DNA from: Miniimonas arenae
Lineage (GTDB): Bacteria > Actinomycetota > Actinomycetes > Actinomycetales > Beutenbergiaceae
Length of the DNA: 64,000 bases
Reading direction: 5' to 3'
NCBI RefSeq assembly: GCF_006351005.1
Contig: NZ_VENP01000005.1
Location: 1-64,000, forward strand
A model generated the notes under the pieces. It had not been told where the DNA came from and did not search any database. It saw nothing but the letters and a program-made list of their open reading frames with translations. Below are positions 3,314-34,292 of this stretch, piece after piece; within the stretch, counting starts at the first letter, position 1, and each line of letters opens with the position of its first letter. Position numbers and translations under genes: made by a program.

Positions 3314-4530
3314 GGCTGCCCGACGGCGAGGACGCGCCGTCGGACGGCACGCTTCCTTCCGCGGTGGTCCAGGGGGCGGCGGAGCGCGCGTTCGGGGTCT
3401 ACCTGCACGTCCCGTTCTGCGCCGTGCGGTGTGGATACTGCGACTTCAACACCTACACGGCGCTGGAGCTCGCCCGCCCCGGCGAGCAGCTCGTCGGCGC
3501 GAGCCAGGACACCTACGCCCAGGCCGCATGCGCCGAGATCGCCTTCGCCGACGCCGCACTGCGGGCGTCGGGCGTGCCGCGCCGCACGGTGGAGACCGTC
3601 TTCGTCGGCGGGGGGACGCCCACCCTGCTGCCCGCGGCCGACCTCGCGGCGATGCTCCAGGCGGTACGGGACACCTGGGGCCTCACCCCGGACGCGGAGG
3701 TGACCACCGAGGCCAACCCGGACTCGGTCACGCCGGACGCCCTGCGTGCACTGGCCCGGGCGGGCTTCACCCGCATCTCGTTCGGCATGCAGTCCGCCGT
3801 GCCGCACGTGCTCGCCACGCTCGACCGCACCCACGATCCCGAGCGGGTGCCCGATGCGGTGCGCTGGGCGCGCGAGGCGGGCCTGGGGGTGTCGGTGGAC
3901 CTCATCTACGGCACACCGGGGGAGTCCCTCGCGGACTGGGCCACGAGCCTCGCGGCCGCCGTCGCGCTCGAGCCGGACCACGTGTCGGCCTACGCGCTCA
4001 CCGTGGAGGAGGGCACCGCGCTGCACCGCCGCGTGGCGCGGGGTGAGCTGCCCGCCCCCACCGACGACGATGAGGCCGCGAAGTACGAGCTCGCCGACGC
4101 CGTGCTCGCTGGGGCGGGCTACGACTGGTACGAGATCAGCAACTGGGCCCGCACGCCCGCCGACCGGTGCCGGCACAACGTCGCCTACTGGCGCAACCAG
4201 GACTGGTGGGGCATCGGCCCGGGCGCGCACAGCCATGTCGGCGGGACGCGGTGGTGGAACATCAAGCACCCGCGGGCGTACGCGGCGCGGATCGCCGCCG
4301 GCGTCTCGCCGGCCGCCGCGCGCGAGGTGCTCGACGGCGAGGCTCGCCTGCTCGAGGACGTCCTCCTCGGGACGCGGCTGGTCGAGGGGTATCCGGTCAG
4401 CGCACTCTCGCGGCAGGCGGTCGAGGGCCTGGTTGCCGACGGCCTCGCCGTCCGCACCGACGCCGACCGGCTCGTGCTCACGCTGCGTGGACGCCTGCTC
4501 GCCGACACCGTGGTGCACCGCCTGACCTGA
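3310..4530 (+). CDS. hemW: Radical SAM haem chaperone HemW
   Basis: A 406-residue HemW-type protein, formerly annotated as an oxygen-independent coproporphyrinogen III oxidase. The radical SAM cluster motif CAVRCGYC gives Cys37, Cys41 and Cys44. It is followed by the CDFN extension typical of this clade, the GGGTPT SAM-binding motif near residue 100, and the C-terminal HemN_C region ([18 protein letters not shown], then the winged-helix end). HemW homologues bind haem and transfer it to apoproteins rather than oxidise coproporphyrinogen. The GTG start overlaps the lepA stop, a gene order common in actinobacteria and firmicutes. The N-terminal 20 residues ([10 protein letters not shown]) are a polar extension before the TIM barrel. 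Confidence 0.93.
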
Positions 4531-24119: not shown

Positions 24120-25312
24120 CCCTCGCTCTCGGCCGCCACACCCTCGGCACGCCCGTCGTCCTCGCGCCCATGGCCGGCGTGACGAACGCGCCGTTCCGGC
24201 AGCTGTGCCGCGAGGCCGCCCGCGCGGGGCTGCCCGCCGAGGGTGCGGCGCCCGCCCTGCACGCGACCGACGTCCCCGAGGGGATCTTCGTCTCGGAGAT
24301 GGTGACCTCGCGCGCGCTCGTCGAGCGCACCGAGGAGTCGATGCACATCATCGAGCCAGCCCCCGACGAGCGAATCCGCAGCGTGCAGCTGTACGGGGTC
24401 GACCCGGCCACCGTGCGTGCGGCGGTCCGGATGCTCGTCACCGAGGACCGCGCCGACCACATCGACCTCAACTTCGGCTGTCCCGTGGCCAAGGTGACCC
24501 GCAAGGGCGGGGGAGCGGTGCTGCCCTGGAAGCGGGACCTGTTCGCGGCGATCGTGCGCGGCGCCGTCGAGGAGGCCCGCCCCTTCGACGTCCCGGTCAC
24601 GGTGAAGATGCGGATGGGCATCGACGACGCGCATCCCACCTACCTCGACGCCGGCCGCACCGCGCAGGACGCCGGGGTGGCCTGGGTCGCGCTGCACGCC
24701 CGGACCGCCGCCGACTACTACTCCGGCGAGGCGCGCTGGGAGGCGATCGCGCGGCTCAAGGGCGCGGTCACCGACATACCCGTGCTCGGCAACGGCGACA
24801 TCTGGTCCGCCGAGGACGCGCTGGCGATGATGGCCGGGACGGGGTGCGACGGTGTGGTCGTGGGCCGCGGCTGCCAGGGCCGCCCGTGGCTGTTCACCGA
24901 CCTCGTCGCCGGGTTCGCCGACTCGCCCGTGCGGGTGCGGCCCGGGCTCGGGTACGTCGCCTCGGTGCTGCGGCGGCACGCCGAGCTCATGGTCGACTAC
25001 CACCGGGGAGATGAGCTGCGCGCCCTGCGCGAGCTGCGCAAGCACATGGCCTGGTACATGAAGGGCTACCCCGTGGGCGGCGAGGCGCGCACCGAGCTCA
25101 CGCGGGTCTCCAGCCTCGCCGACCTCGACGCCGCCCTCGCGGGGCTCGACCTCGACCTGCCCTACCCGGGCGTCGGCGCCGAGGGTCAGCGCGGCCGCGG
25201 CGGGTCGCCCAAGGTGCCGCACGTCCCCGACGGCTGGCTCGACACGCGCGACGTCGACGACCGCCTCCGCGCGATGCTCGCCGAGGCCGAGCTGAGCGTG
25301 TCCGGTGGCTGA
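24116..25312 (+). CDS. dusB: tRNA-dihydrouridine synthase (DusB type)
   Basis: Flavin-dependent enzyme that reduces uridine to dihydrouridine in tRNA. The 398-residue protein opens with a TIM barrel: LAPMAGVTNAPFRQLCREA (FMN site), IRSVQLYGVDP, DLNFGCPVAKVTRKGGGA with the catalytic cysteine, VKMRMG, VALHARTAADYYSGEARWE and VLGNGDIWSAEDA. The family GCDGVVVGRGCQGRPWLF phosphate-binding segment and the C-terminal helical RNA-binding domain (RELRKHMAWYMKGYP) follow. GTG 24116 overlaps the yibE/F-type stop by four bases. Its 3' end overlaps the amylase GTG by eight bases. Confidence 0.95.
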   Translation: MTLALGRHTLGTPVVLAPMAGVTNAPFRQLCREAARAGLPAEGAAPALHATDVPEGIFVSEMVTSRALVERTEESMHIIEPAPDERIRSVQLYGVDPATVRAAVRMLVTEDRADHIDLNFGCPVAKVTRKGGGAVLPWKRDLFAAIVRGAVEEARPFDVPVTVKMRMGIDDAHPTYLDAGRTAQDAGVAWVALHARTAADYYSGEARWEAIARLKGAVTDIPVLGNGDIWSAEDALAMMAGTGCDGVVVGRGCQGRPWLFTDLVAGFADSPVRVRPGLGYVASVLRRHAELMVDYHRGDELRALRELRKHMAWYMKGYPVGGEARTELTRVSSLADLDAALAGLDLDLPYPGVGAEGQRGRGGSPKVPHVPDGWLDTRDVDDRLRAMLAEAELSVSGG

Positions 25313-26822
25313 CGCGCCGACCGGGCGAGGCGCGCGGGGCGCGCGGGCGCGAACCGCCGCGATCGCGGGCGCGGCGACGCTCGCCGTCGGGGGCCTCGCC
25401 GCGTGCACGGGCGGGACGGGCGGCGCGAACGGCGCCGGCGACGGCGACGCGCGCTCCGACGTCGGCGTCCAGATGTTCCAGTGGACGTGGGACTCGATCG
25501 CCCAGGAGTGCACCGACACGCTCGGGCCCGCGGGCTACGGCTGGGTGCTGACGTCGCCGCCGCAGGAGCACATCCTCGGCGAGGAGTGGTGGACGTCCTA
25601 CCAGCCCGTGTCCTACCGCGTGGAGTCGCGACTCGGCACGCGCGAGCAGTTCGAGGCGATGACGGCGGCGTGCCGGGAGGCGGGCGTCGACGTCGTCGCC
25701 GATGCGGTGATCAACCACATGACCGGCTCCGACACGGGCGGCACGGGCTGGGCCGGGAGCTCCTACGAGCACTACGACTACCCCGGGATCTACACGACAG
25801 GAGACTTCCACCACTGCGGCCTCACGCCCAGCGACGACATCGTGAGCTACGGCGACGCGGCGCAGGTGCAGACGTGCGAGCTGCTCAACCTCGCCGACCT
25901 GGACACCTCGAGCGAGAAGGTCCAGGACACGCTGCGCGCCTACCTCCAGGACCTGCTGGACCTCGGCGTGGCGGGCTTCCGGATCGACGCGGCCAAGCAC
26001 ATCGCGCCCGAGGACCTCGCGGCGATCCTCGACCCTTTCCCGGACGACACGATCGTCAGGCAGGAGGTGATCGGCGCCTCGGGCGAGCCGGTCCAGCCCG
26101 CGCAGTACACCGGCACCGGTCAGGTCTTCGACTTCGTCTACGCCCGCGCGCTCACGGCCGCGGTCCGCTCCGGCGACCTGGCGGGCGTGCTCGACCTGCC
26201 CACCTCGACCGGGTTGTCGAGCAACCAGGCCGTGGTGTTCGTCGACAACCACGACACCGAGCGCAACGGCGAGACGCTCTCGCGCAGCTACGGCGACCAG
26301 TACGCGCTCGCGACCACGCTGCTCCTCGCCGCGCCCTACGGCACGCCGGTGGTGCTCTCGAGCTACGCGTTCGGCATCACCGACCCGAACCTCGGCCCGG
26401 CGCAGGACTCGACCGGCGCGGTGCTCGACGCGGCGTGTCCCGACGAGGTCGGACCCGGGGTGGCGTATCCCGACCAGACGTGGGTCTGCCAGCACCGCTG
26501 GGACGCCGTGGTCGGCATGGTGAACTGGCGCATCGCTGCGGGCGACGCCCCCGCGGAGGAGATCACCGCGATGGACGACGGCGTGCTCAGCTTCCGCCGC
26601 GGCGACGCGTGGGTGGTGCTCAACGTGACCAGGGAGCCGGTGTCGTTCGGCCTCGAGACCGCGCTCGAGCCGGGGGAGTACTGCGACGTGGTGAGCGGCC
26701 TGCTCGTCGACGGCGCGTGCGCCGGCGGGACGGTCGAGGTGCACGACGACGGCGTGGCCTCGCTCGTGGTCCCGGCGCAGGGCGCCGTCGCGTTCCACCC
26801 GGGGCAGCGGGTGTCCGGCTAG
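25305..26822 (+). CDS. Secreted alpha-amylase lipoprotein (GH13, subfamily 32-like)
   Basis: Endo-acting alpha-amylase for starch, 505 residues. A basic N-terminus and hydrophobic segment lead to a lipobox, LAVGGLAAC with Cys34, so it should be anchored on the outside of the membrane rather than freely secreted. The GH13 barrel has all four regions: DAVINH (133-138), GFRIDAAKH with nucleophile Asp228, RQEVIG with Glu254, and FVDNHDTE with Asp317. A C-terminal beta domain follows; there is no starch-binding module. The sequence resembles Streptomyces-type amylases. GTG 25305 lies inside the end of dusB, odd for an exported polysaccharide hydrolase; its own promoter may lie within dusB. It converges on malR with one base between stops. 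Confidence 0.92.
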   Translation: MADAPTGRGARGARARTAAIAGAATLAVGGLAACTGGTGGANGAGDGDARSDVGVQMFQWTWDSIAQECTDTLGPAGYGWVLTSPPQEHILGEEWWTSYQPVSYRVESRLGTREQFEAMTAACREAGVDVVADAVINHMTGSDTGGTGWAGSSYEHYDYPGIYTTGDFHHCGLTPSDDIVSYGDAAQVQTCELLNLADLDTSSEKVQDTLRAYLQDLLDLGVAGFRIDAAKHIAPEDLAAILDPFPDDTIVRQEVIGASGEPVQPAQYTGTGQVFDFVYARALTAAVRSGDLAGVLDLPTSTGLSSNQAVVFVDNHDTERNGETLSRSYGDQYALATTLLLAAPYGTPVVLSSYAFGITDPNLGPAQDSTGAVLDAACPDEVGPGVAYPDQTWVCQHRWDAVVGMVNWRIAAGDAPAEEITAMDDGVLSFRRGDAWVVLNVTREPVSFGLETALEPGEYCDVVSGLLVDGACAGGTVEVHDDGVASLVVPAQGAVAFHPGQRVSG

Positions 26823-26823
26823 C

Positions 26824-27849
26824 TCAGCGCGGGTGCATCCCCGCCGTCGAGCCCCGCACGATGAGCTCGGGGGCGAACCGCAGCTCGTCGCGCACGGAGC
26901 GGCCCTGCATCGTCGAGAGCAGCAGGTCCACGACGGCCTGGCTCATCGCGACCACGGGCTGGCGCAGCGTGGTGAGCGGGGGGTCGGTGAAGCCGACGAA
27001 GAACGAGTCGTCGAAGCCCACGATCGAGACGTCCTCGGGCACCCGCAGGCCGGCGTGCTTCACCGCGCGGATCGCGCCGAGCGCCATGAGGTCGCTGCCG
27101 CAGACGATCGCGGTCACGCCCTCGCGCACCAGCACGCGCGCCGAGGCCTCGCCGCCCTCGACCGTGAACAGCGACGTCAGCACGCGATGCTCGGCGGTCG
27201 GGCCGACGTAGCGCTTCATCGCGGTGACGAACCCCTCGCGCTTCTGCGCGGAGGGCACGAGGCGCTCGGGCCCGACGGCGAGCGCGATCCGGCTGTGCCC
27301 CATCGCCGCGAGGTGCCGCACGGCGATGTCCATCGCGAGGCGCTCGTCCACCGACACCGACGGCGCGGTGAGATCGTCCCGGTGGCCGTTGACGAGGACG
27401 TACGGGACGCCGCGCTCGGTGAGCCGCTCGTAGCGGGTCAGCGGGGACTGGACGTCGGCGTGCATCCCGTTGACGAAGACGATGCCGGCGACGTCGGCCG
27501 CGAGCAGGGTCTCGACGTACTCGTCCTCCGTGACCCCGCTGGCCGTCTGCGTGCACAGCAGCGGCGTGTAGTCGTGGTGTGCGAGCGCCGTCTCGATCGC
27601 CTGGGCGAACGCGGGAAACACGGGGTTGGACAGCTCGGGCACGATGAGGCCCACCAGGCCGGCGGACTGCGAGGTCGGGCGGTTGGGCCGCTCGTACCCG
27701 AGCATGTCGAGCGCGTGGTACACGGCCTGCCTCGTCGACTCGGCCACGCCGGGCTTGCGGTTGAGGACGCGGGAGACCGTTGCGGTGCTGACGCCCGACT
27801 GCGCGGCCAGGTCGGCCAGCCTCGTGCGTTGGCGGTCGCGTTCGCTCAC
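26824..27849 (-). CDS. malR: LacI-family repressor, probable maltodextrin regulator (MalR-like)
   Basis: A 341-residue LacI/GalR regulator. The helix-turn-helix and hinge read RLADLAAQSGVSTATVSRVLN (about residues 10-30), then KPGVAESTRQAVYHALDMLGY. The periplasmic-binding-protein-like sensor domain includes LVGLIVPELSNPVFPAFAQA, SRIALAVGPERL, VCGSDLMALGAIRAV and DVSIVGFDDSFFVGFTDPPLTT. GTG 27849 follows AAGGGACGATCAC. It is divergent from malEFG and the intergenic region has repeated TTGCA motifs, so it most likely represses malE and itself, with maltose or a maltodextrin as inducer. The ligand is inferred from context only. Confidence 0.9.
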   Translation of the reverse strand: MSERDRQRTRLADLAAQSGVSTATVSRVLNRKPGVAESTRQAVYHALDMLGYERPNRPTSQSAGLVGLIVPELSNPVFPAFAQAIETALAHHDYTPLLCTQTASGVTEDEYVETLLAADVAGIVFVNGMHADVQSPLTRYERLTERGVPYVLVNGHRDDLTAPSVSVDERLAMDIAVRHLAAMGHSRIALAVGPERLVPSAQKREGFVTAMKRYVGPTAEHRVLTSLFTVEGGEASARVLVREGVTAIVCGSDLMALGAIRAVKHAGLRVPEDVSIVGFDDSFFVGFTDPPLTTLRQPVVAMSQAVVDLLLSTMQGRSVRDELRFAPELIVRGSTAGMHPR

Positions 27850-28228
27850 CGTGATCGTCCCTTCCTTGGGCGAGAGCATCCGTTGCGTCATCCGTTGCGT
27901 CACTGCAAAGGAGCAGAGCGTTTTCGTAGGCTTGCATAGTTTCGCGAAGCGCGGGCCCAGCGCAAGCACCACGATTCCGGGAGTCACGGGCGCGTCGGCG
28001 CTGTTCGGCCCTGCAACGACGCCGCAGGTCGGCGAAACGCTGCAACCGCGCGCACCGCGGTTGCCACGGACTCTGGGTCACGATTCAGTCACAGTCCTGC
28101 GTCGCGCACCACACCCCCTGTTGGCTTGCAGAAAGTTGCACTAGCGTGACGTGCGTCGCAGTGCCTCGTCTCGTCTGGCCACCGGGGTCCAGAGGTGGTG
28201 CTGCCCGTTCCACTGGAGGACGATCGAC
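27850..28228. promoter_or_regulatory. malR-malE divergent control region
   Basis: This 379-base gap holds no gene. It carries repeated half-sites: CTGCAA at 27903, 28011 and 28040; CTTGCA at 27931; CTTGCAG at 28125-28131; and TTGCA at 28136-28140. The last two flank AAAG and lie between a -35-like TGTTGG/TTGGCT (28119-28126) and a TAGCGT -10 (28142-28147) of malE, a classic repressor position. A perfect TTCGCGAA palindrome is at 27941-27948, and a CCGTTGCGTCAT duplication spans roughly 27880-27902. CTTGCAG-type repeats are known in Streptomyces amylase and mal promoters as LacI-type regulator sites (recalled). Confidence 0.7.
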
Positions 28229-29569
28229 ATGCGCAAGTCCCTTCTCTCGGTCGCCGCCGTCGCCTCGGTGACGCTGCTGCTGACCGCCTGTGGTGGTGGC
28301 GGAGGCGGTACCGACGCCACGGGTGACTCGACGGCGACCACGGACGCCAGCGCCGAGGCCACCGGCGACGCCGGCGCGAGCGCCGACCCCAGCGCCCCGC
28401 CGGTCCGCGGCAACGAGGACCTCGTCGTCTGGACCGACGCCACCAAGCTCGACGCCGTGACCGCCGTCGCGCAGGCGTTCGGCGAGGCCAACGGCATCAC
28501 GGTCGGCGTGCAGGCCATCGTCAACACGCGTTCGGACTTCATCACGGCGAACCAGGCAGGCAACGGTCCCGACGTGCTCGTCGGTGCGCACGACTGGATC
28601 GGTCAGCTCGTCGCCAACGGCGCGATCGACCCGCTGCAGATCTCGGCCGACTCCCTCTCGGGCTACTCCGAGAAGGCGGTCACCGCCGTCACGTACAACG
28701 GCCAGCTCATGGGCATCCCCTACGGCGTCGAGTCGCTGGTGCTCTACTGCAACAAGACCTACGCCCCGGACACCTACGCGACGCTCGACGACGCGATCGC
28801 CGCCGGGCAGGCCGCCAAGGACGCCGGCAGCGTGCAGTCCGCGCTGAACATCCCGCAGGGCGTGAACGGTGACCCGTACCACATGCAGCCGCTGTTCACC
28901 TCGGCGGGCGGCTACCTGTTCGGCCTGGACGCCACCGGCACGCCCGACGCCAACGACCTGGGCGTCGGCACCGACGCGGGCATCGCAGCTGCGCAGAAGA
29001 TCGCCACGCTCGGCGACGCCGGCTCGAAGGTGCTCTCGACGGCCATCACGAACGACAACGCGATCTCGCTCTTCGCGCAGGGCCAGGCGGGCTGCCTGAT
29101 CTCGGGCCCGTGGGCGCTGTCCGACGTCGAGGCGGGCCTCGGCGCGGACGGCTACACCGTCCAGCCGATCCCCGGCTTCGCGGGCATGTCCCCGGCTGAG
29201 CCGTTCATGGGCGCCCAGGCGTTCTACGTCGCTTCCAACGGCCAGAACAAGAGCTTCGCGCAGGCCTTCGTGACCGGCACCTCCGGTGGCGGCCTGAACT
29301 CCGAGGAGGCCATGACGACGTTGTTCGAGGGCACGAACCTGCCGCCCGCGATGACGTCCGTGCGGGCGACGGCCGCCGCCTCCGACCCCCTGATCGGGGT
29401 GTTCGGTGACGCCGCTGACGCGGCCTACCCGATGCCGGCGATCCCCGCGATGGACCAGGTGTGGACGCCGCTCGGCCAGGCGTACGCCGCAATCATCGGT
29501 GGCGCCGACCCCGCCAGCACGATGACGACGGCGGCGCAGACGATCAGCTCCGCGATCGCCTCCTCCTGA
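28229..29569 (+). CDS. malE: Maltodextrin-binding lipoprotein (MalE-like)
   Basis: A 446-residue solute-binding protein of an ABC sugar importer. Signal peptide MRKSLLSVAAVASVTLLLTAC ends in a lipobox with Cys21. A Gly/Thr/Ala/Asp linker of about 40 residues follows. The family-1 extracellular binding domain has LVVWTDATKLDAVTAVAQAF, GPDVLVGAHDWIGQLVANG, GIPYGVESLVLYCNK, SLFAQGQAGCLISGPWA and the C-terminal AMDQVWTPLGQAYA typical of maltose/maltodextrin binders. ATG 28229 follows CTGGAGGACGATC. Linkage to two permeases and GH13 enzymes supports maltodextrin as ligand. The ATPase is not in the window; a shared MsiK-type ATPase elsewhere is expected. Confidence 0.94.
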   Translation: MRKSLLSVAAVASVTLLLTACGGGGGGTDATGDSTATTDASAEATGDAGASADPSAPPVRGNEDLVVWTDATKLDAVTAVAQAFGEANGITVGVQAIVNTRSDFITANQAGNGPDVLVGAHDWIGQLVANGAIDPLQISADSLSGYSEKAVTAVTYNGQLMGIPYGVESLVLYCNKTYAPDTYATLDDAIAAGQAAKDAGSVQSALNIPQGVNGDPYHMQPLFTSAGGYLFGLDATGTPDANDLGVGTDAGIAAAQKIATLGDAGSKVLSTAITNDNAISLFAQGQAGCLISGPWALSDVEAGLGADGYTVQPIPGFAGMSPAEPFMGAQAFYVASNGQNKSFAQAFVTGTSGGGLNSEEAMTTLFEGTNLPPAMTSVRATAAASDPLIGVFGDAADAAYPMPAIPAMDQVWTPLGQAYAAIIGGADPASTMTTAAQTISSAIASS

Positions 29570-29745: not shown

Positions 29746-31380
29746 GTGACCACCACCGCCCCCCCGAAGACCGACGCACGACCCCCGGCCGGCTCCCGCC
29801 GGTCCTTTCCCATGGAGATCACCGGTGGCTCGACCGGTGTGCTGATCGCCAAAGTGATCGGCCTCGGCCTGATCCTCGCCCTCGCGATCGGCCTGACGCC
29901 CACGCTCATCGCGACCTCGAACTGGGCCTTCCTGGCCATCCTCTGGGTCATCACGCTCGTCATCCTCGCGATCTACCTCACGGGGCGCGCGGTACCGGCG
30001 AAGTACCTCCTGCCCGGCACCCTGTTCCTCGTCCTCTTCCTCATCTATCCGATCCTCCTGACGTTCCAGCTCTCGACCACCAACTACGGCGACGGAACCC
30101 GCACCAGCCGCGAGGCGGCCATCGCCCGCATCGTCGGCAGCTCGGCCGTGCAGGTCGAGGGCGGTGCGACCTACGGCATGGTGATCGGCACGTCGGGCTC
30201 GACCACGACGGGGCCGTTCGTCATGCTGCTCGTGAACTCCACGACCGGTGACGCGTACGTCGGTTCCGAGGAGGACGGCCTGCAGCCGCTCGACGAGGAC
30301 GCCGTGACGATCGAGAGCGGCGTCGTCACCGAGGCGGACGGCTACACGATCCTCACCCGCCAGGAGCAGAACAGCCTCTCCAGCTCGGGTCAGCCGCTCG
30401 ACGGCTTCTCGGTGCCCGCGGGCGGTGACTCCGTCATCAAGGTGCAGGGCTTCCAGGCGATCGAGATGCGCACCCCCCTCGTCTACGACGAGGAGGCGGA
30501 CACCATCACGAACACCGACACGGGCGTCGTCTACACCGAGCAGCTCGGCCCGTCCGGTGACCGTTCGTTCTTCGTCGACGAGGACGGCAACCGGCTCTCC
30601 AACCAGTCGTGGGGAGAGAACATCGGGCTGCAGAACTACAAGCGGATCTTCACCGACCCCGCGATCACCGGGCCGTTCGCCGGGATCTTCGCGTGGACGC
30701 TGGTCTTCGCGTTCGTCTCGGTGGCGAGCACGTTCCTGCTCGGTCTGCTCCTCGCCGTCACCCTGAACGACCCCCGGATGCGCTTCCAGCGCGGCTTCCG
30801 GTCGATCCTCATCCTCCCGTACGCCATCCCCGGGTTCATCTCACTCATGGTGTGGGCCGGGTTCTGGAACCGCGACTTCGGTCTGGTCAACGACCTGCTC
30901 GGAACGGGCATCGACTGGCTGGGCAACGCGACCTGGGCCAAGGTCGCGGTGCTCGCGACCAACCTCTGGATGGGCTTCCCGTACATGTTCCTCATCAGTA
31001 CCGGGGCGCTGCAGTCGATCCCTGGCGACCTCAAGGAGGCGGCGTCGATCGACGGCGCGACCGGGTTCACCCAGTTCCGCAAGATCGTCTTCCCGCTCCT
31101 CATGGTCGCCACGGCGCCGCTGCTGGTGTCCTCGTTCGCGTTCAACTTCAACAACTTCAACGCGATCCAGCTGCTCACGGAGGGCGGTCCGTTCACCCCG
31201 GACAACCCGACGGCCGGCGGCACCGACATCCTCATCAGCTACACCTACCGGCTCGCGTTCGGCTCGGCCGGTCAGCAGATCGGGTTCGCGTCCGCGGTCT
31301 CGGTCGTGCTGTTCGTCCTGACCGGCGTCATCGCCGCGATCCAGTTCCGTGGCACCCGCGCGCTCGAGGAGATGAACTGA
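29746..31380 (+). CDS. malF: Maltodextrin ABC transporter permease MalF
   Basis: A 544-residue permease of the MalF type. Three TM helices (about 28-48, 52-72, 85-105) precede a large extracytoplasmic insertion of roughly 190 residues (from STTNYGDGTRTSREAAIARI to EQLGPSGDRSFFVDEDGN), equivalent to the MalF P2 domain that touches the binding protein. The conserved core begins with NYKRIF and has five more TM helices. The EAA loop reads LKEAASIDGATGFTQFRKIV, which docks on the ATPase. GTG 29746 follows CCAAGGAGTGCCGCT. The final stretch RGTRALEEMN ends one base before malG. Confidence 0.93.
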   Translation: MTTTAPPKTDARPPAGSRRSFPMEITGGSTGVLIAKVIGLGLILALAIGLTPTLIATSNWAFLAILWVITLVILAIYLTGRAVPAKYLLPGTLFLVLFLIYPILLTFQLSTTNYGDGTRTSREAAIARIVGSSAVQVEGGATYGMVIGTSGSTTTGPFVMLLVNSTTGDAYVGSEEDGLQPLDEDAVTIESGVVTEADGYTILTRQEQNSLSSSGQPLDGFSVPAGGDSVIKVQGFQAIEMRTPLVYDEEADTITNTDTGVVYTEQLGPSGDRSFFVDEDGNRLSNQSWGENIGLQNYKRIFTDPAITGPFAGIFAWTLVFAFVSVASTFLLGLLLAVTLNDPRMRFQRGFRSILILPYAIPGFISLMVWAGFWNRDFGLVNDLLGTGIDWLGNATWAKVAVLATNLWMGFPYMFLISTGALQSIPGDLKEAASIDGATGFTQFRKIVFPLLMVATAPLLVSSFAFNFNNFNAIQLLTEGGPFTPDNPTAGGTDILISYTYRLAFGSAGQQIGFASAVSVVLFVLTGVIAAIQFRGTRALEEMN

Positions 31381-31381
31381 C

Positions 31382-32326
31382 ATGGCGACCCCGGACCTGA
31401 CCTCGGCCACCGCCGTCCCTCCGACGGTCGTGGCTCCCGCGAAGCCGCAGAAGGGAGCCGGCCCCGACAAGCTCAGCGGGGCCCGCTGGTGGCGCATCCT
31501 GTCGTGGCGCTACCTCGTCGGCATCGTGGCCTGCGTCTACGCGCTCATCCCGGTGCTGTACATCGTGTCCGCCGCGCTCAACCCGATCGGGTCGGTGGCC
31601 TCCACCGAGATCATCCCGAACACCGTGAGCTGGGTGAACTTCGAGGCGCTCACCAACAACCCCTCCCGCCCGTTCTTCCGGTGGTTCGGGAACACGGTGA
31701 TCGTCGCCGTGGTCGTCGTGTTCGCCCAGCTGCTGTTCAGCTCCCTGGCGGCGTACGCGTTCTCCCGGTTCCGGTTCAAGGGCCGCCGGCTCGGGCTGCT
31801 CTCGCTGCTGCTGATCCTGATGTTCCCGCAGATCCTCGTGACGGTCGCGCTGTTCCAGATGTTCAGCGTCATCGGCGCGGTGATGCCGTCCGTCGGACTG
31901 GACACGCTGCCGGGGTACATCCTCATCATGCTGGGCGGCTCGCTCGGGCAGGTGTACCTCATCAAGGGCTTCTTCGACACCATCCCGCACGAGCTCGACG
32001 AGGCGGCCAAGATCGACGGCGCGGGGCACGTGCGCGTCTTCTTCGAGGTCTGCCTGCCCCTGGTGCGGCCGATCCTCGTGATCTCCGGCCTGCTGGTCTT
32101 CGTCGGAGTGGTCGGGGAGTTCCTGCTCGCGTCGATCTTCCTGCGCTCGACGACCATCAAGACGCTCGCCGTGGGCATGTACGGCGTGCTCGCGAGCGAC
32201 CGGTCCAACAACCTGGGCTGGTTCGCGGCGGCGTCGGTCGTCATCGCGGTGCCGATCATCATCCTGTTCCAGTTCCTCCAGCGCTTCATCGTCGGGGGCA
32301 TCACCTCCGGTGCGGTCAAGGGATGA
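31382..32326 (+). CDS. malG: Maltodextrin ABC transporter permease MalG
   Basis: A 314-residue MalG-type permease with a 40-residue Pro-rich cytoplasmic N-terminus and six TM helices. The EAA loop (LDEAAKIDGAGHVRVFFEV) is intact and is followed by CLPLVRPILVISGLLVFVG. The segment EFLLASIFLRSTTIKTLAVG resembles the E. coli MalG region that enters the transport path, and the end, QRFIVGGITSGAVKG, is characteristic of MalG. Start ATG 31382 is one base after the malF stop, so the pair is coupled. The GH13 enzyme gene starts four bases downstream, making transporter and hydrolase one operon. Confidence 0.94.
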   Translation: MATPDLTSATAVPPTVVAPAKPQKGAGPDKLSGARWWRILSWRYLVGIVACVYALIPVLYIVSAALNPIGSVASTEIIPNTVSWVNFEALTNNPSRPFFRWFGNTVIVAVVVVFAQLLFSSLAAYAFSRFRFKGRRLGLLSLLLILMFPQILVTVALFQMFSVIGAVMPSVGLDTLPGYILIMLGGSLGQVYLIKGFFDTIPHELDEAAKIDGAGHVRVFFEVCLPLVRPILVISGLLVFVGVVGEFLLASIFLRSTTIKTLAVGMYGVLASDRSNNLGWFAAASVVIAVPIIILFQFLQRFIVGGITSGAVKG

Positions 32327-32330
32327 CCAG

Positions 32331-34292
32331 GTGAGTCCGGAGTCGCCCACCGACCTCCTGCGTCACCCGCACCACGACGGATCCGCGTGCTACGCGGCGC
32401 CCGGGCCTCATCGCCTGGGCGCCGCGGTGCCGCTCCGCGTCCTCGTGCCCGACACGGCCGACGGCGAGAGGGGCGCCGACCACGTCGTGCTGCGGGCGGT
32501 GCGCGACGGCGAGCCGCACCTCACGCCCGCCGTCGCCGGCGCGCGGGGGCCGCACGGTACCTGGTGGCACGTGGACCTCGTCCTGGTCAACGCACTGACC
32601 TCCTACCGGTTCTTCGTCGGGGGCCCGCACGGGCGCTACCGCTGGCTCAACGCGGAGGGCGTGCACGAGCGGGACACGTCCGACGGTGCGGACTTCCTGA
32701 TCCGCGCCGACGAGCAGCCGCCGTCGTGGGTCGCCGACCAGGTCGCGTACCAGGTGTTCCCCGACCGGTTCGCGCGCTCGGCCGGCTCCGCGGACCGGTC
32801 CACGCCGGAGTGGGCGGACCCGATGCCGTGGGACGCCCCGGTTCTCGTGCGCGGGCCGGGCGTGGAGCGGCAGTGGTACGGCGGCGACCTCGACGGCGTG
32901 GCGGAGCGGCTGGACCACGTCGCGGACCTGGGCGCGACGGTGCTGTACCTCACGCCCGTGTTCGAGGGTCGGTCCAACCACCGCTACGACGCCGTCACGT
33001 TCGACACCGTCGATCCCGTGCTGGGCGGCGACGAGGCCCTCGTGCGGCTGATCGACGCGGCACACGAGCGCGGCATCCGCGTCCTCGGCGACCTCACGAC
33101 GAACCACACCGGTCGCGAGCACGCGTGGTTCCGCGCCGCGCAGGCCGACCCCGACTCGGTGGAGGCCGGCTTCTACCGCTTCCGCCGCCACCCCGACGAC
33201 TACGTCGCGTGGCTCGACGTGCCGAGCCTTCCCAAGCTCGACCACCGCAGCGCCGAGCTGCGCGCGCGGCTGTACGAGGGGGAGTCCTCGGTGGTCGCGC
33301 GGTGGCTGCGGGCCGGGCTGGACGGCTGGCGCATCGACGTCGCGAACATGACCGGGCGGATGGCCGCGGACGACCTCGCGCGCGACGTCGCCCGCCGGAT
33401 CCGCGCCACGATGCTCGCCGAACGGCCGGACGCGTGGCTGCTCGCCGAGCACGGGCACGACGCCGGGCCCGACCTCACGGGGGACGGCTGGGACGGCACG
33501 ATGGACTACCAGGGCTTCACCCGCCCGCTGTGGGTGTGGCTCAACGGGGGTGCGCCCGACGTCGCGGATCGCCCGGGCGACGGCGAGCAGGCGAACGACG
33601 GCGAGCCGCAGCGGGTGCCGCACGGCCTGGACTTCCTCGGCCTGCCGATCGACGTGCCGGTGCTGCCCGCGACCTCGGCCGTGGGCACGATGCGCGAGGT
33701 GCATGCCGCCATGCCCTGGGCTGCCCAGAGCGCGTCGACGCTGCACCTGGACTCCCACGACACCCCGCGGTTCCGCACGATCGCCGGCGGCGGGACCGAC
33801 GGCACGATCGACGTGGCCGGCCGCGGCCGGCGCCGGCACCTGCTGGCGCTCGCGCTGCAGATGACGATGCCCGGCGTGCCCTCGGTCTTCCAGGGCGACG
33901 AGATCGGCCTGACCGGGACCACGGGAGAGCACGCGCGCACCCCGTTCCCGTGGGACCGGGACGTGTGGGACACCCCGACGTGGGAGGCCTACCGCGCGTG
34001 GGTGCACGCGCGGACCGGCAGCGTCGCGCTGCGGCGCGGCGGGCTGCGCTGGGTGCACGTGGGCGCCGACAGCCTCACGTTCCTGCGCGAGCACCCCGAC
34101 GAGCGCGTCCTCGTGCACGTGGTGCGCGCCGCCGTCGAGCCTCTCGCGCTGCCGCTGGACCTGCTCGGCGGGGCGCTCGAGGGCGTCCTCGTGGGCGCCG
34201 AGGCCCGGGTGGACGCCGGCCGGCTCGTGCTGCCCGGTGCGCCGGGTGCGTCGGCCTGGCGGCTGGGCGCACGCGGCCTGGCGTGGCGGTGA
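32331..34292 (+). CDS. GH13 cyclomaltodextrinase/neopullulanase-like enzyme
   Basis: Cytoplasmic GH13 enzyme of 653 residues that likely hydrolyses imported maltodextrins. The N-terminal 120 residues form a CBM34-like beta domain (begins RHPHHDGSACYAAPG), the mark of the neopullulanase/maltogenic amylase/cyclomaltodextrinase group. The barrel shows DLTTNHTG, GWRIDVANM with nucleophile Asp336, LLAEHGHD with Glu373, and LDSHDTPR with Asp477. A linker in the barrel (RPGDGEQANDGEPQ) looks like a recent polar insertion. GTG 32331, four bases after malG, is preferred to the in-frame codon at 32310 inside malG. No signal peptide. Exact specificity cannot be decided by eye. Confidence 0.9.
   Translation: MSPESPTDLLRHPHHDGSACYAAPGPHRLGAAVPLRVLVPDTADGERGADHVVLRAVRDGEPHLTPAVAGARGPHGTWWHVDLVLVNALTSYRFFVGGPHGRYRWLNAEGVHERDTSDGADFLIRADEQPPSWVADQVAYQVFPDRFARSAGSADRSTPEWADPMPWDAPVLVRGPGVERQWYGGDLDGVAERLDHVADLGATVLYLTPVFEGRSNHRYDAVTFDTVDPVLGGDEALVRLIDAAHERGIRVLGDLTTNHTGREHAWFRAAQADPDSVEAGFYRFRRHPDDYVAWLDVPSLPKLDHRSAELRARLYEGESSVVARWLRAGLDGWRIDVANMTGRMAADDLARDVARRIRATMLAERPDAWLLAEHGHDAGPDLTGDGWDGTMDYQGFTRPLWVWLNGGAPDVADRPGDGEQANDGEPQRVPHGLDFLGLPIDVPVLPATSAVGTMREVHAAMPWAAQSASTLHLDSHDTPRFRTIAGGGTDGTIDVAGRGRRRHLLALALQMTMPGVPSVFQGDEIGLTGTTGEHARTPFPWDRDVWDTPTWEAYRAWVHARTGSVALRRGGLRWVHVGADSLTFLREHPDERVLVHVVRAAVEPLALPLDLLGGALEGVLVGAEARVDAGRLVLPGAPGASAWRLGARGLAWR

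What the first reader, a model, noticed from the sequence alone, without database searches (positions are those of the whole stretch)
27850..28228. Many TTGCA half-sites in the malR-malE control region
Six copies of CTTGCA/CTGCAA-type words occur in 379 bases, two of them between the malE -35 and -10. They resemble the CTTGCAG repeats of Streptomyces amylase and mal promoters. A TTCGCGAA palindrome is a rival candidate for the LacI-type operator. Which one MalR uses is open.
Basis: partly seen in the sequence, partly recalled or inferred. Interest (0 to 1): 0.5.

Follow-up and report, generated by a model that had tools for sequence, protein, structure and literature searches.

The report
Predicted maltose repressor site before malE
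The repeated TTGCA words between the maltose-repressor gene and the maltose-transporter gene are real, and two of them form one conserved site where the repressor most likely sits to switch the transporter off, a control switch of a kind already known from soil bacteria.

Summary
In detail: six TTGCA words (either strand) lie in 27850-28228, half of the 12 in the window; 0 of 5000 shuffles of the region reach six. Relatives show which words matter. The pair at 28126/28136 (TTGCAGAAAGTTGCACTA, 10 bp apart) has its counterpart in all five nearest relatives examined. A matrix from 25 more distant loci, window excluded, ranks it first in 64 kb (11.2 bits; next 1.0). It is most likely the MalR operator of malE. 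TTCGCGAA is in 0 of 41 relatives, so it is not the main operator. The half-site is the published MalR/AcrC CTTGCAG word: a new member of a known kind.

Two further points. A TTGC/GCAA cluster precedes a glycogen/maltodextrin phosphorylase gene in this genome and in all five family relatives in which the gene was found, suggesting one MalR regulon. A second conserved element, GTCAC-N6-GTCAC (28077-28092), lies 48-49 bp before the operator (38 in one relative) and matches published GlnR boxes; its regulator is unidentified.

The parts
28126..28143 (+). Predicted MalR operator TTGCAGAAAGTTGCACTA (half-sites at 28126 and 28136; dimer axis near 28133/28134 if read as GCAR-N4-TTGC)
   Evidence: First-ranked site in 64 kb with a matrix made without the window; TTGC-TTGC at 10 bp in 5 of 5 nearest loci, window included, and in G006
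28077..28092 (+). Second conserved element GTCAC-N6-GTCAC, GlnR/MtrA-type box, regulator unidentified
   Evidence: 48-49 bp before the operator in the window, L019, L020, L021; 38 in L022; 48 in L037
27933..27948 (-). Weak malR-proximal candidate TTCGCGAAACTATGCA, joining TTCGCGAA and the TTGCA word at 27932
   Evidence: 11 of 16 to the malR-proximal sites of L019/L020; 25 of 127970 positions in 64 kb do as well: suggestive only
27904..27908 (.). Isolated TTGCA-type word (TGCAA)
   Evidence: no conserved partner found
27932..27936 (.). TTGCA word beside TTCGCGAA
28012..28016 (.). TTGCA-type word (TGCAA); on the minus strand CCTGCGGCGTCGTTGC, a possible pair 11 bp apart
   Evidence: 12 of 16; 5 of 127970 positions do as well
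28041..28045 (.). TTGCA-type word (TGCAA)
26824..27849 (-). malR, LacI-family regulator, 341 aa, GTG start
   Evidence: Pfam LacI and Peripla_BP_3
28229..29569 (+). malE, solute-binding protein, 446 aa
   Evidence: Pfam SBP_bac_8 and SBP_bac_1; NCBIfam MalE model matched below its cut-off
29773..31380 (+). malF-type permease (start codon not settled)
   Evidence: Pfam; best NCBIfam match MalF, below cut-off
31382..32326 (+). malG-type permease
   Evidence: Pfam; best NCBIfam match MalG, below cut-off
32310..34292 (+). Alpha-amylase-family enzyme, best match maltodextrin glucosidase (start not settled)

Best explanation
The TTGCA pair at 28126-28143 is the operator of MalR. A MalR dimer binds two TGC-containing half-sites one helical turn apart, just upstream of or over the malE promoter, and blocks malEFG until a maltodextrin-type inducer releases it. 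Shown: the words, their enrichment, the conservation of the pair and of its spacing, the divergent malR-malE layout, the shared recognition-helix stretch. Inferred: binding, repression, inducer, promoter position. Similar half-sites precede a glycogen/maltodextrin phosphorylase gene, so MalR probably couples maltodextrin uptake to phosphorolysis inside the cell.
For: 6 words against a shuffle mean of 0.86, 0 of 5000. TTGC-TTGC at 10 bp in 5 of 5 nearest loci including the window, 0.04 expected; same in G006. GCAA-N4-TTGC in 30 of 37 further loci, 0.04 expected, in the same register as the window's GCAG-N4-TTGC. Matrix without the window ranks 28123 first in 64 kb, 11.2 against 1.0 bits. STATVSRVLN shared by the nearest and the 37 further MalR proteins. 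CTTGCAG published as the MalR core site. Phosphorylase promoter cluster in this genome and 5 of 5 relatives that have the gene.
Against: No binding data. The matrix sites were picked with a GC-TTGC expression and 12 of 37 loci gave no site to it. AcrC, which is divergent to malEFG and binds there, does not control malEFG. The window's site departs from the usual LacI-family even palindrome with a central CG. Only 1 of 17 amylase-domain loci showed an operator-like pair upstream, about 1 kb away.
Confidence: 0.85

Rival explanations
1. The TTCGCGAA palindrome at 27941 is the main MalR operator.
For: It is a perfect 8-bp palindrome in the right region, once in 64 kb; it may be half of a weak malR-proximal site.
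Against: In 0 of 41 relatives scanned, although their MalR shares the HTH stretch.
Confidence: 0.04
2. The TTGCA words are chance, following from the lower GC of a promoter region.
For: The region is 64.6% GC against 73.6% for the window.
Against: Shuffles keep the region's own dinucleotides and never reach six; the pair is conserved in position and spacing.
Confidence: 0.02
3. The conserved pair is promoter core, not operator: TTGCA as a -35-like hexamer and TA as the start of -10.
For: In further relatives TTGCAA could serve as -35 before a TACGGT-like -10 (my reading).
Against: Two TTGCA copies at 10 bp are not explained by one promoter; the orientation of the site relative to malE differs between groups; the sigma-70 scan finds nothing.
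Confidence: 0.06
4. The other four words (27904, 27932, 28012, 28041) are accessory MalR sites that act with the main operator, by looping or spreading.
For: Still enriched without the pair, 29 of 5000 shuffles; nearest relatives have a malR-proximal site; looping was proposed for AcrC.
Against: Not individually conserved; matrix scores are low; the 11- and 12-of-16 matches are near chance.
Confidence: 0.35
5. The neighbouring LacI-type protein binds here but controls other genes, as AcrC does in Actinoplanes.
For: AcrC precedent; candidate sites at other genes.
Against: The best site in the 64-kb window is the one at malE, kept in the nearest relatives.
Confidence: 0.08

Closest known systems
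MalR of Streptomyces lividans / S. coelicolor and its CTTGCAG sites upstream of malE and amylase genes (as reported in PMC5526262, passages)
   Same: LacI-family gene divergent from malE; TTGCAG-type half-sites as direct or inverted repeats before malE
   Different: Here one 10-bp-spaced pair is the conserved operator, most amylase genes lack a pair, and a phosphorylase gene appears to be a target; the original Streptomyces papers were not read
AcrC of Actinoplanes sp. SE50/110 and its site O2, CTGCAAG-2-CTTGCAG (PMC5526262)
   Same: Same TGCA-N6-TGCA spacing; regulator gene divergent from malEFG
   Different: AcrC controls acarbose genes acbE/acbD and not malEFG; O2 is a palindrome, the window's site is closer to a direct repeat
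MalR regulons of Bifidobacterium (PMC4746261, passages)
   Same: LacI-type maltodextrin regulons; a MalR3 ortholog is predicted to control glycogen phosphorylase glgP
   Different: Paralogous MalR groups; their motifs were not compared here
GlnR box GTnAC-n6-GTnAC and MtrA consensus GTAACCNNNNNGTAACC (PMC10704036; PMC12323332)
   Same: 28077-28092 is GTCAC-N6-GTCAC
   Different: Regulator not identified here; a fixed spacing to a MalR operator was not mentioned in the passages read

Membership tests
LacI/GalR family regulator | LacI HTH plus periplasmic-binding-like sensor domain | tested here: met
   PF00356 51.4 bits, PF13377 117.2 bits, both over cut-off
Actinobacterial MalR | Gene divergent from a maltose-type ABC transporter operon | tested here: met
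   malR minus, malE plus in the window; 52 of 99 loci with a usable malR start have the divergent pair
Actinobacterial MalR | CTTGCAG-type half-sites upstream of malE | tested here: met
   CTTGCAG at 28125, TTGCAC at 28136
Actinobacterial MalR | Orthology to the characterised Streptomyces MalR | tested here: inconclusive
   58-61% identity to LacI-type loci of Streptomyces; the characterised protein itself was not compared
Actinobacterial MalR | Binds the site, represses malE, released by maltodextrin | not testable with these tools
   Needs EMSA, footprint and a deletion
Canonical LacI-family operator | Even palindrome with central CG (1173 of 1303 regulators in PMC4052901) | tested here: not met
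   Window site GCAG-AAAG-TTGC has AA in the centre and one mismatch between the arms
GlnR/MtrA box | GTnAC-n6-GTnAC | tested here: met
   28077-28092 GTCACGATTCAGTCAC; consensus
GlnR/MtrA box | Bound by GlnR or MtrA of this organism | not tested
   Neither gene was looked for; binding needs an experiment

The most novel reading that the evidence does not exclude
In this clade the maltose operon is a two-input switch: a MalR operator that has drifted from a palindrome towards a direct repeat, coupled at fixed helical phase (48-49 bp, or one turn less) to a GlnR/MtrA-type response-regulator box, so that nitrogen or envelope state gates maltodextrin uptake, while MalR also controls a phosphorylase found only in the nearest relatives within the family set.
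Probability: 0.3. Interest if true: 0.5.

Novelty: new member of a known kind. Interest (0 to 1): 0.3.

Why it matters
It settles, as far as sequence can, which of two candidate words MalR uses, gives a matrix and a spacing usable across Cellulomonas-type bacteria, extends the predicted regulon to a phosphorylase and perhaps a secreted amylase-pullulanase, and points to a second regulator acting on the same promoter.

Tried and rejected
Genome-wide TTGCA pairs: TTGCAGNNNNTTGCAS gives two exact places in 3.4 Mb, this one and C81:18780, a short tandem run of CTTGCAG-like words near a LuxR-type gene, judged unrelated. TTGCRNNNNNTTGCR gives 4 places against 3 for the reversed control, so the pattern alone is not diagnostic. 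TGCRRNNNNTTGCNSTA with one mismatch gives 28 places (reversed control 245); only two are exact, and most are taken as chance. GCAA-N-TTGC-N-TTGC gives 1 place, the phosphorylase promoter, against 4 for the control.

Amylase upstream regions: 17 of 20 amylase-domain hits checked, three second fragments (L150, L153, L155) left out; one operator-like pair, about 1 kb from the domain start. For L143 my script assumed a full 1500-base flank although the contig end cut it; redone.

C66:43726 TTGCGGTGCCTTGCG about 200 bp before a binding-protein gene is plausible but at chance level for the pattern.

Rows dropped: L036 and L037 (G006) failed my malR-start filter because malR there is split into two matches; L037 was read apart and agrees. 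Of 99 loci with a usable malR start, 47 have no MalE match and were not used for spacing counts; 3 of those 47 carry GCAA-N4-TTGC upstream of malR. The 37-locus set is what remained of 47 after a shared-12-mer filter; 40 of the 47 have GCAA-N4-TTGC. Four matrix sites (L039, L056, L064, L114) are probably not the main site of their locus and were kept. Paper searches for CTTGCAAG + LacI gave 90 papers, 20 listed, none opened.

Full report
Setting. The window is part of contig C94 of a 3.4-Mb genome in 148 contigs, 73.6% GC. malR (26824-27849, minus; LacI family) and malE (28229-29569, plus; solute-binding protein) are divergent; malF- and malG-type permeases and a maltodextrin-glucosidase-like enzyme follow malE. 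An alpha-amylase-like gene (25305-26822, plus) lies on the far side of malR. The NCBIfam cut-offs for MalE, MalF and MalG are not reached, so the names rest on best matches and gene order.

Observation. Six TTGCA words in 379 bases, 6 of 12 in the window. None of 5000 dinucleotide shuffles of the region reaches six; mean 0.86. Without the pair at 28126/28136 four words remain, reached by 29 of 5000 shuffles.

Relatives. A family search of 24 genomes (own included) found MalR matches in 19; a scan of genome contigs kept the best 80 of 496 related loci. tblastn placed MalE beside MalR; 52 of 99 loci with a usable malR start have the divergent pair. In the nearest group (L019-L022; MalR 77-82% identical) the main shared blocks upstream of malE are RTCAC-N6-GTCAC (GACAC in L022) and TTGCAG-N-AA-[GC]-TTGCA-[GC]-TA, with a short CGCAG block further downstream. 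TTGC-TTGC at 10 bp is in 5 of 5 loci including the window, 0.04 expected. A sixth genome, G006 (L037), has TTGCTGCAAGTTGCAGTA and GTCACGATTCGGTCAC, 48 bp apart.

Further relatives. In 37 less-redundant loci the dominant pair is GCAA-N4-TTGC (30 of 37; 0.04 expected), often TTGCAAGNCNTTGCGGTAAC, read on the strand facing malR. It is in the same register as the window's site: GCAG-AAAG-TTGC against GCAA-N4-TTGC. Because TGCA is its own reverse complement, TTGCA-N5-TTGCA is at once a direct repeat and an inverted TGCA-N6-TGCA. The published AcrC site CTGCAAG-2-CTTGCAG has that spacing too (PMC5526262). Beyond TGCA the nearest group fits a direct repeat better and the further relatives a palindrome better (my reading).

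Held-out test. A 25-bp matrix from 25 of the 37 loci, with neither the window nor its nearest relatives in it, ranks 28123 (plus) first among all positions on both strands of 64 kb: 11.2 bits, next 1.0. A matrix from only the four nearest relatives also ranks it first, 37.8 against 6.5, but four sequences make a narrow matrix. TTCGCGAA is in 0 of the 41 relatives scanned.

Protein side. The MalR copies of the nearest and the 37 further loci carry STATVSRVLN in the HTH, as the window's does; Streptomyces-type copies have SEATVSRVLN. This fits one half-site specificity in both groups; it is not proof.

Regulon. A TTGC-N6-TTGC pair at C64:23727 lies about 110 bp before the longest frame of an 863-aa glycogen/starch phosphorylase gene (TIGR02093, 1115.6 bits). 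The gene was found at E 1e-100 in 6 of 24 family genomes: this one and the five nearest relatives. In all six, three or more TTGC/GCAA words fall within 32 bp in the 260 bp upstream, against 8 of 1549 overlapping 260-bp segments from this genome's fetched loci. The site of this genome was found by its motif, so only the five relatives are independent. Spacings vary, and strict operator matches occur in only some. A large amylase-pullulanase-type gene (C82, start about 30585) has four TTGCA matches, three separate words, about 253-363 bp upstream; 11 of 3000 shuffles reach this. It was one of 17 loci looked at, so it is a lead only.

Second element. GTCAC-N6-GTCAC (28077-28092) starts 49, 48, 48 and 49 bp before the operator in the window, L019, L020 and L021, 38 in L022, 48 in L037. 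It fits the GlnR box GTnAC-n6-GTnAC (PMC10704036) and resembles the MtrA consensus (PMC12323332). In this genome RTMACGRTTNNGTMAC with one mismatch gives 12 places against 0 for the reversed control, among them places before two other binding-protein genes (C66, C82) and a lipoprotein-like gene (C87) (the names of the last three partly, partly from my reading of their N-termini). GlnR control of maltose uptake is reported for Saccharopolyspora erythraea (cited in PMC12323332). Which protein binds here is open.

Mechanism. Most likely MalR sits on 28126-28143 and blocks malE transcription until a maltodextrin releases it. Binding, inducer and promoter position are inferred. AcrC, which is divergent to malEFG, binds there and does not control it, is the main caution.

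Literature seen. PMC5526262, PMC12323332, PMC10704036, PMC4052901 and PMC4746261: passages only. A search for Cellulomonas + maltose + MalR gave two papers, neither opened. I make no claim that this site is absent from print.

Noticed in passing
window 28077-28092; C66:43676, C82:16257, C87:22791 and nine other places listed with them, this one included: 11-bp direct repeat RTMACGRTTNNGTMAC: 12 places in the genome with one mismatch against 0 for the reversed control, several before binding-protein or lipoprotein genes. GlnR/MtrA-type box, regulator unidentified.
   Followed up: partly
L170 (C64) about 3728-3752; L183-L188: Cluster of TTGC/GCAA words upstream of a glycogen/maltodextrin phosphorylase gene that was found only in this genome and its five nearest relatives among 24 family genomes.
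   Followed up: yes
L168 (C82:30585-30952): Three separate TTGCA words, and a GTGAGCGCTTCCACCGCTCAC stretch that looks like another LacI-type site (recalled resemblance), upstream of a large secreted amylase-pullulanase-type gene.
   Followed up: partly
window 27881-27902: CGTTGCGTCA occurs twice 12 bp apart, just upstream of malR, and nowhere else in the window on either strand.
   Followed up: no
L036/L037 (G006:C2:197925-198930 and beyond): In one relative malR is split into two matches and malE also changes frame: decayed genes or assembly errors.
   Followed up: no
L003 about 1482-1522 (C81:18780-18820): Short tandem run of CTGCAAG-like words (CTTGCAG on the minus strand) near a LuxR-type regulator gene; unexplained.
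   Followed up: no
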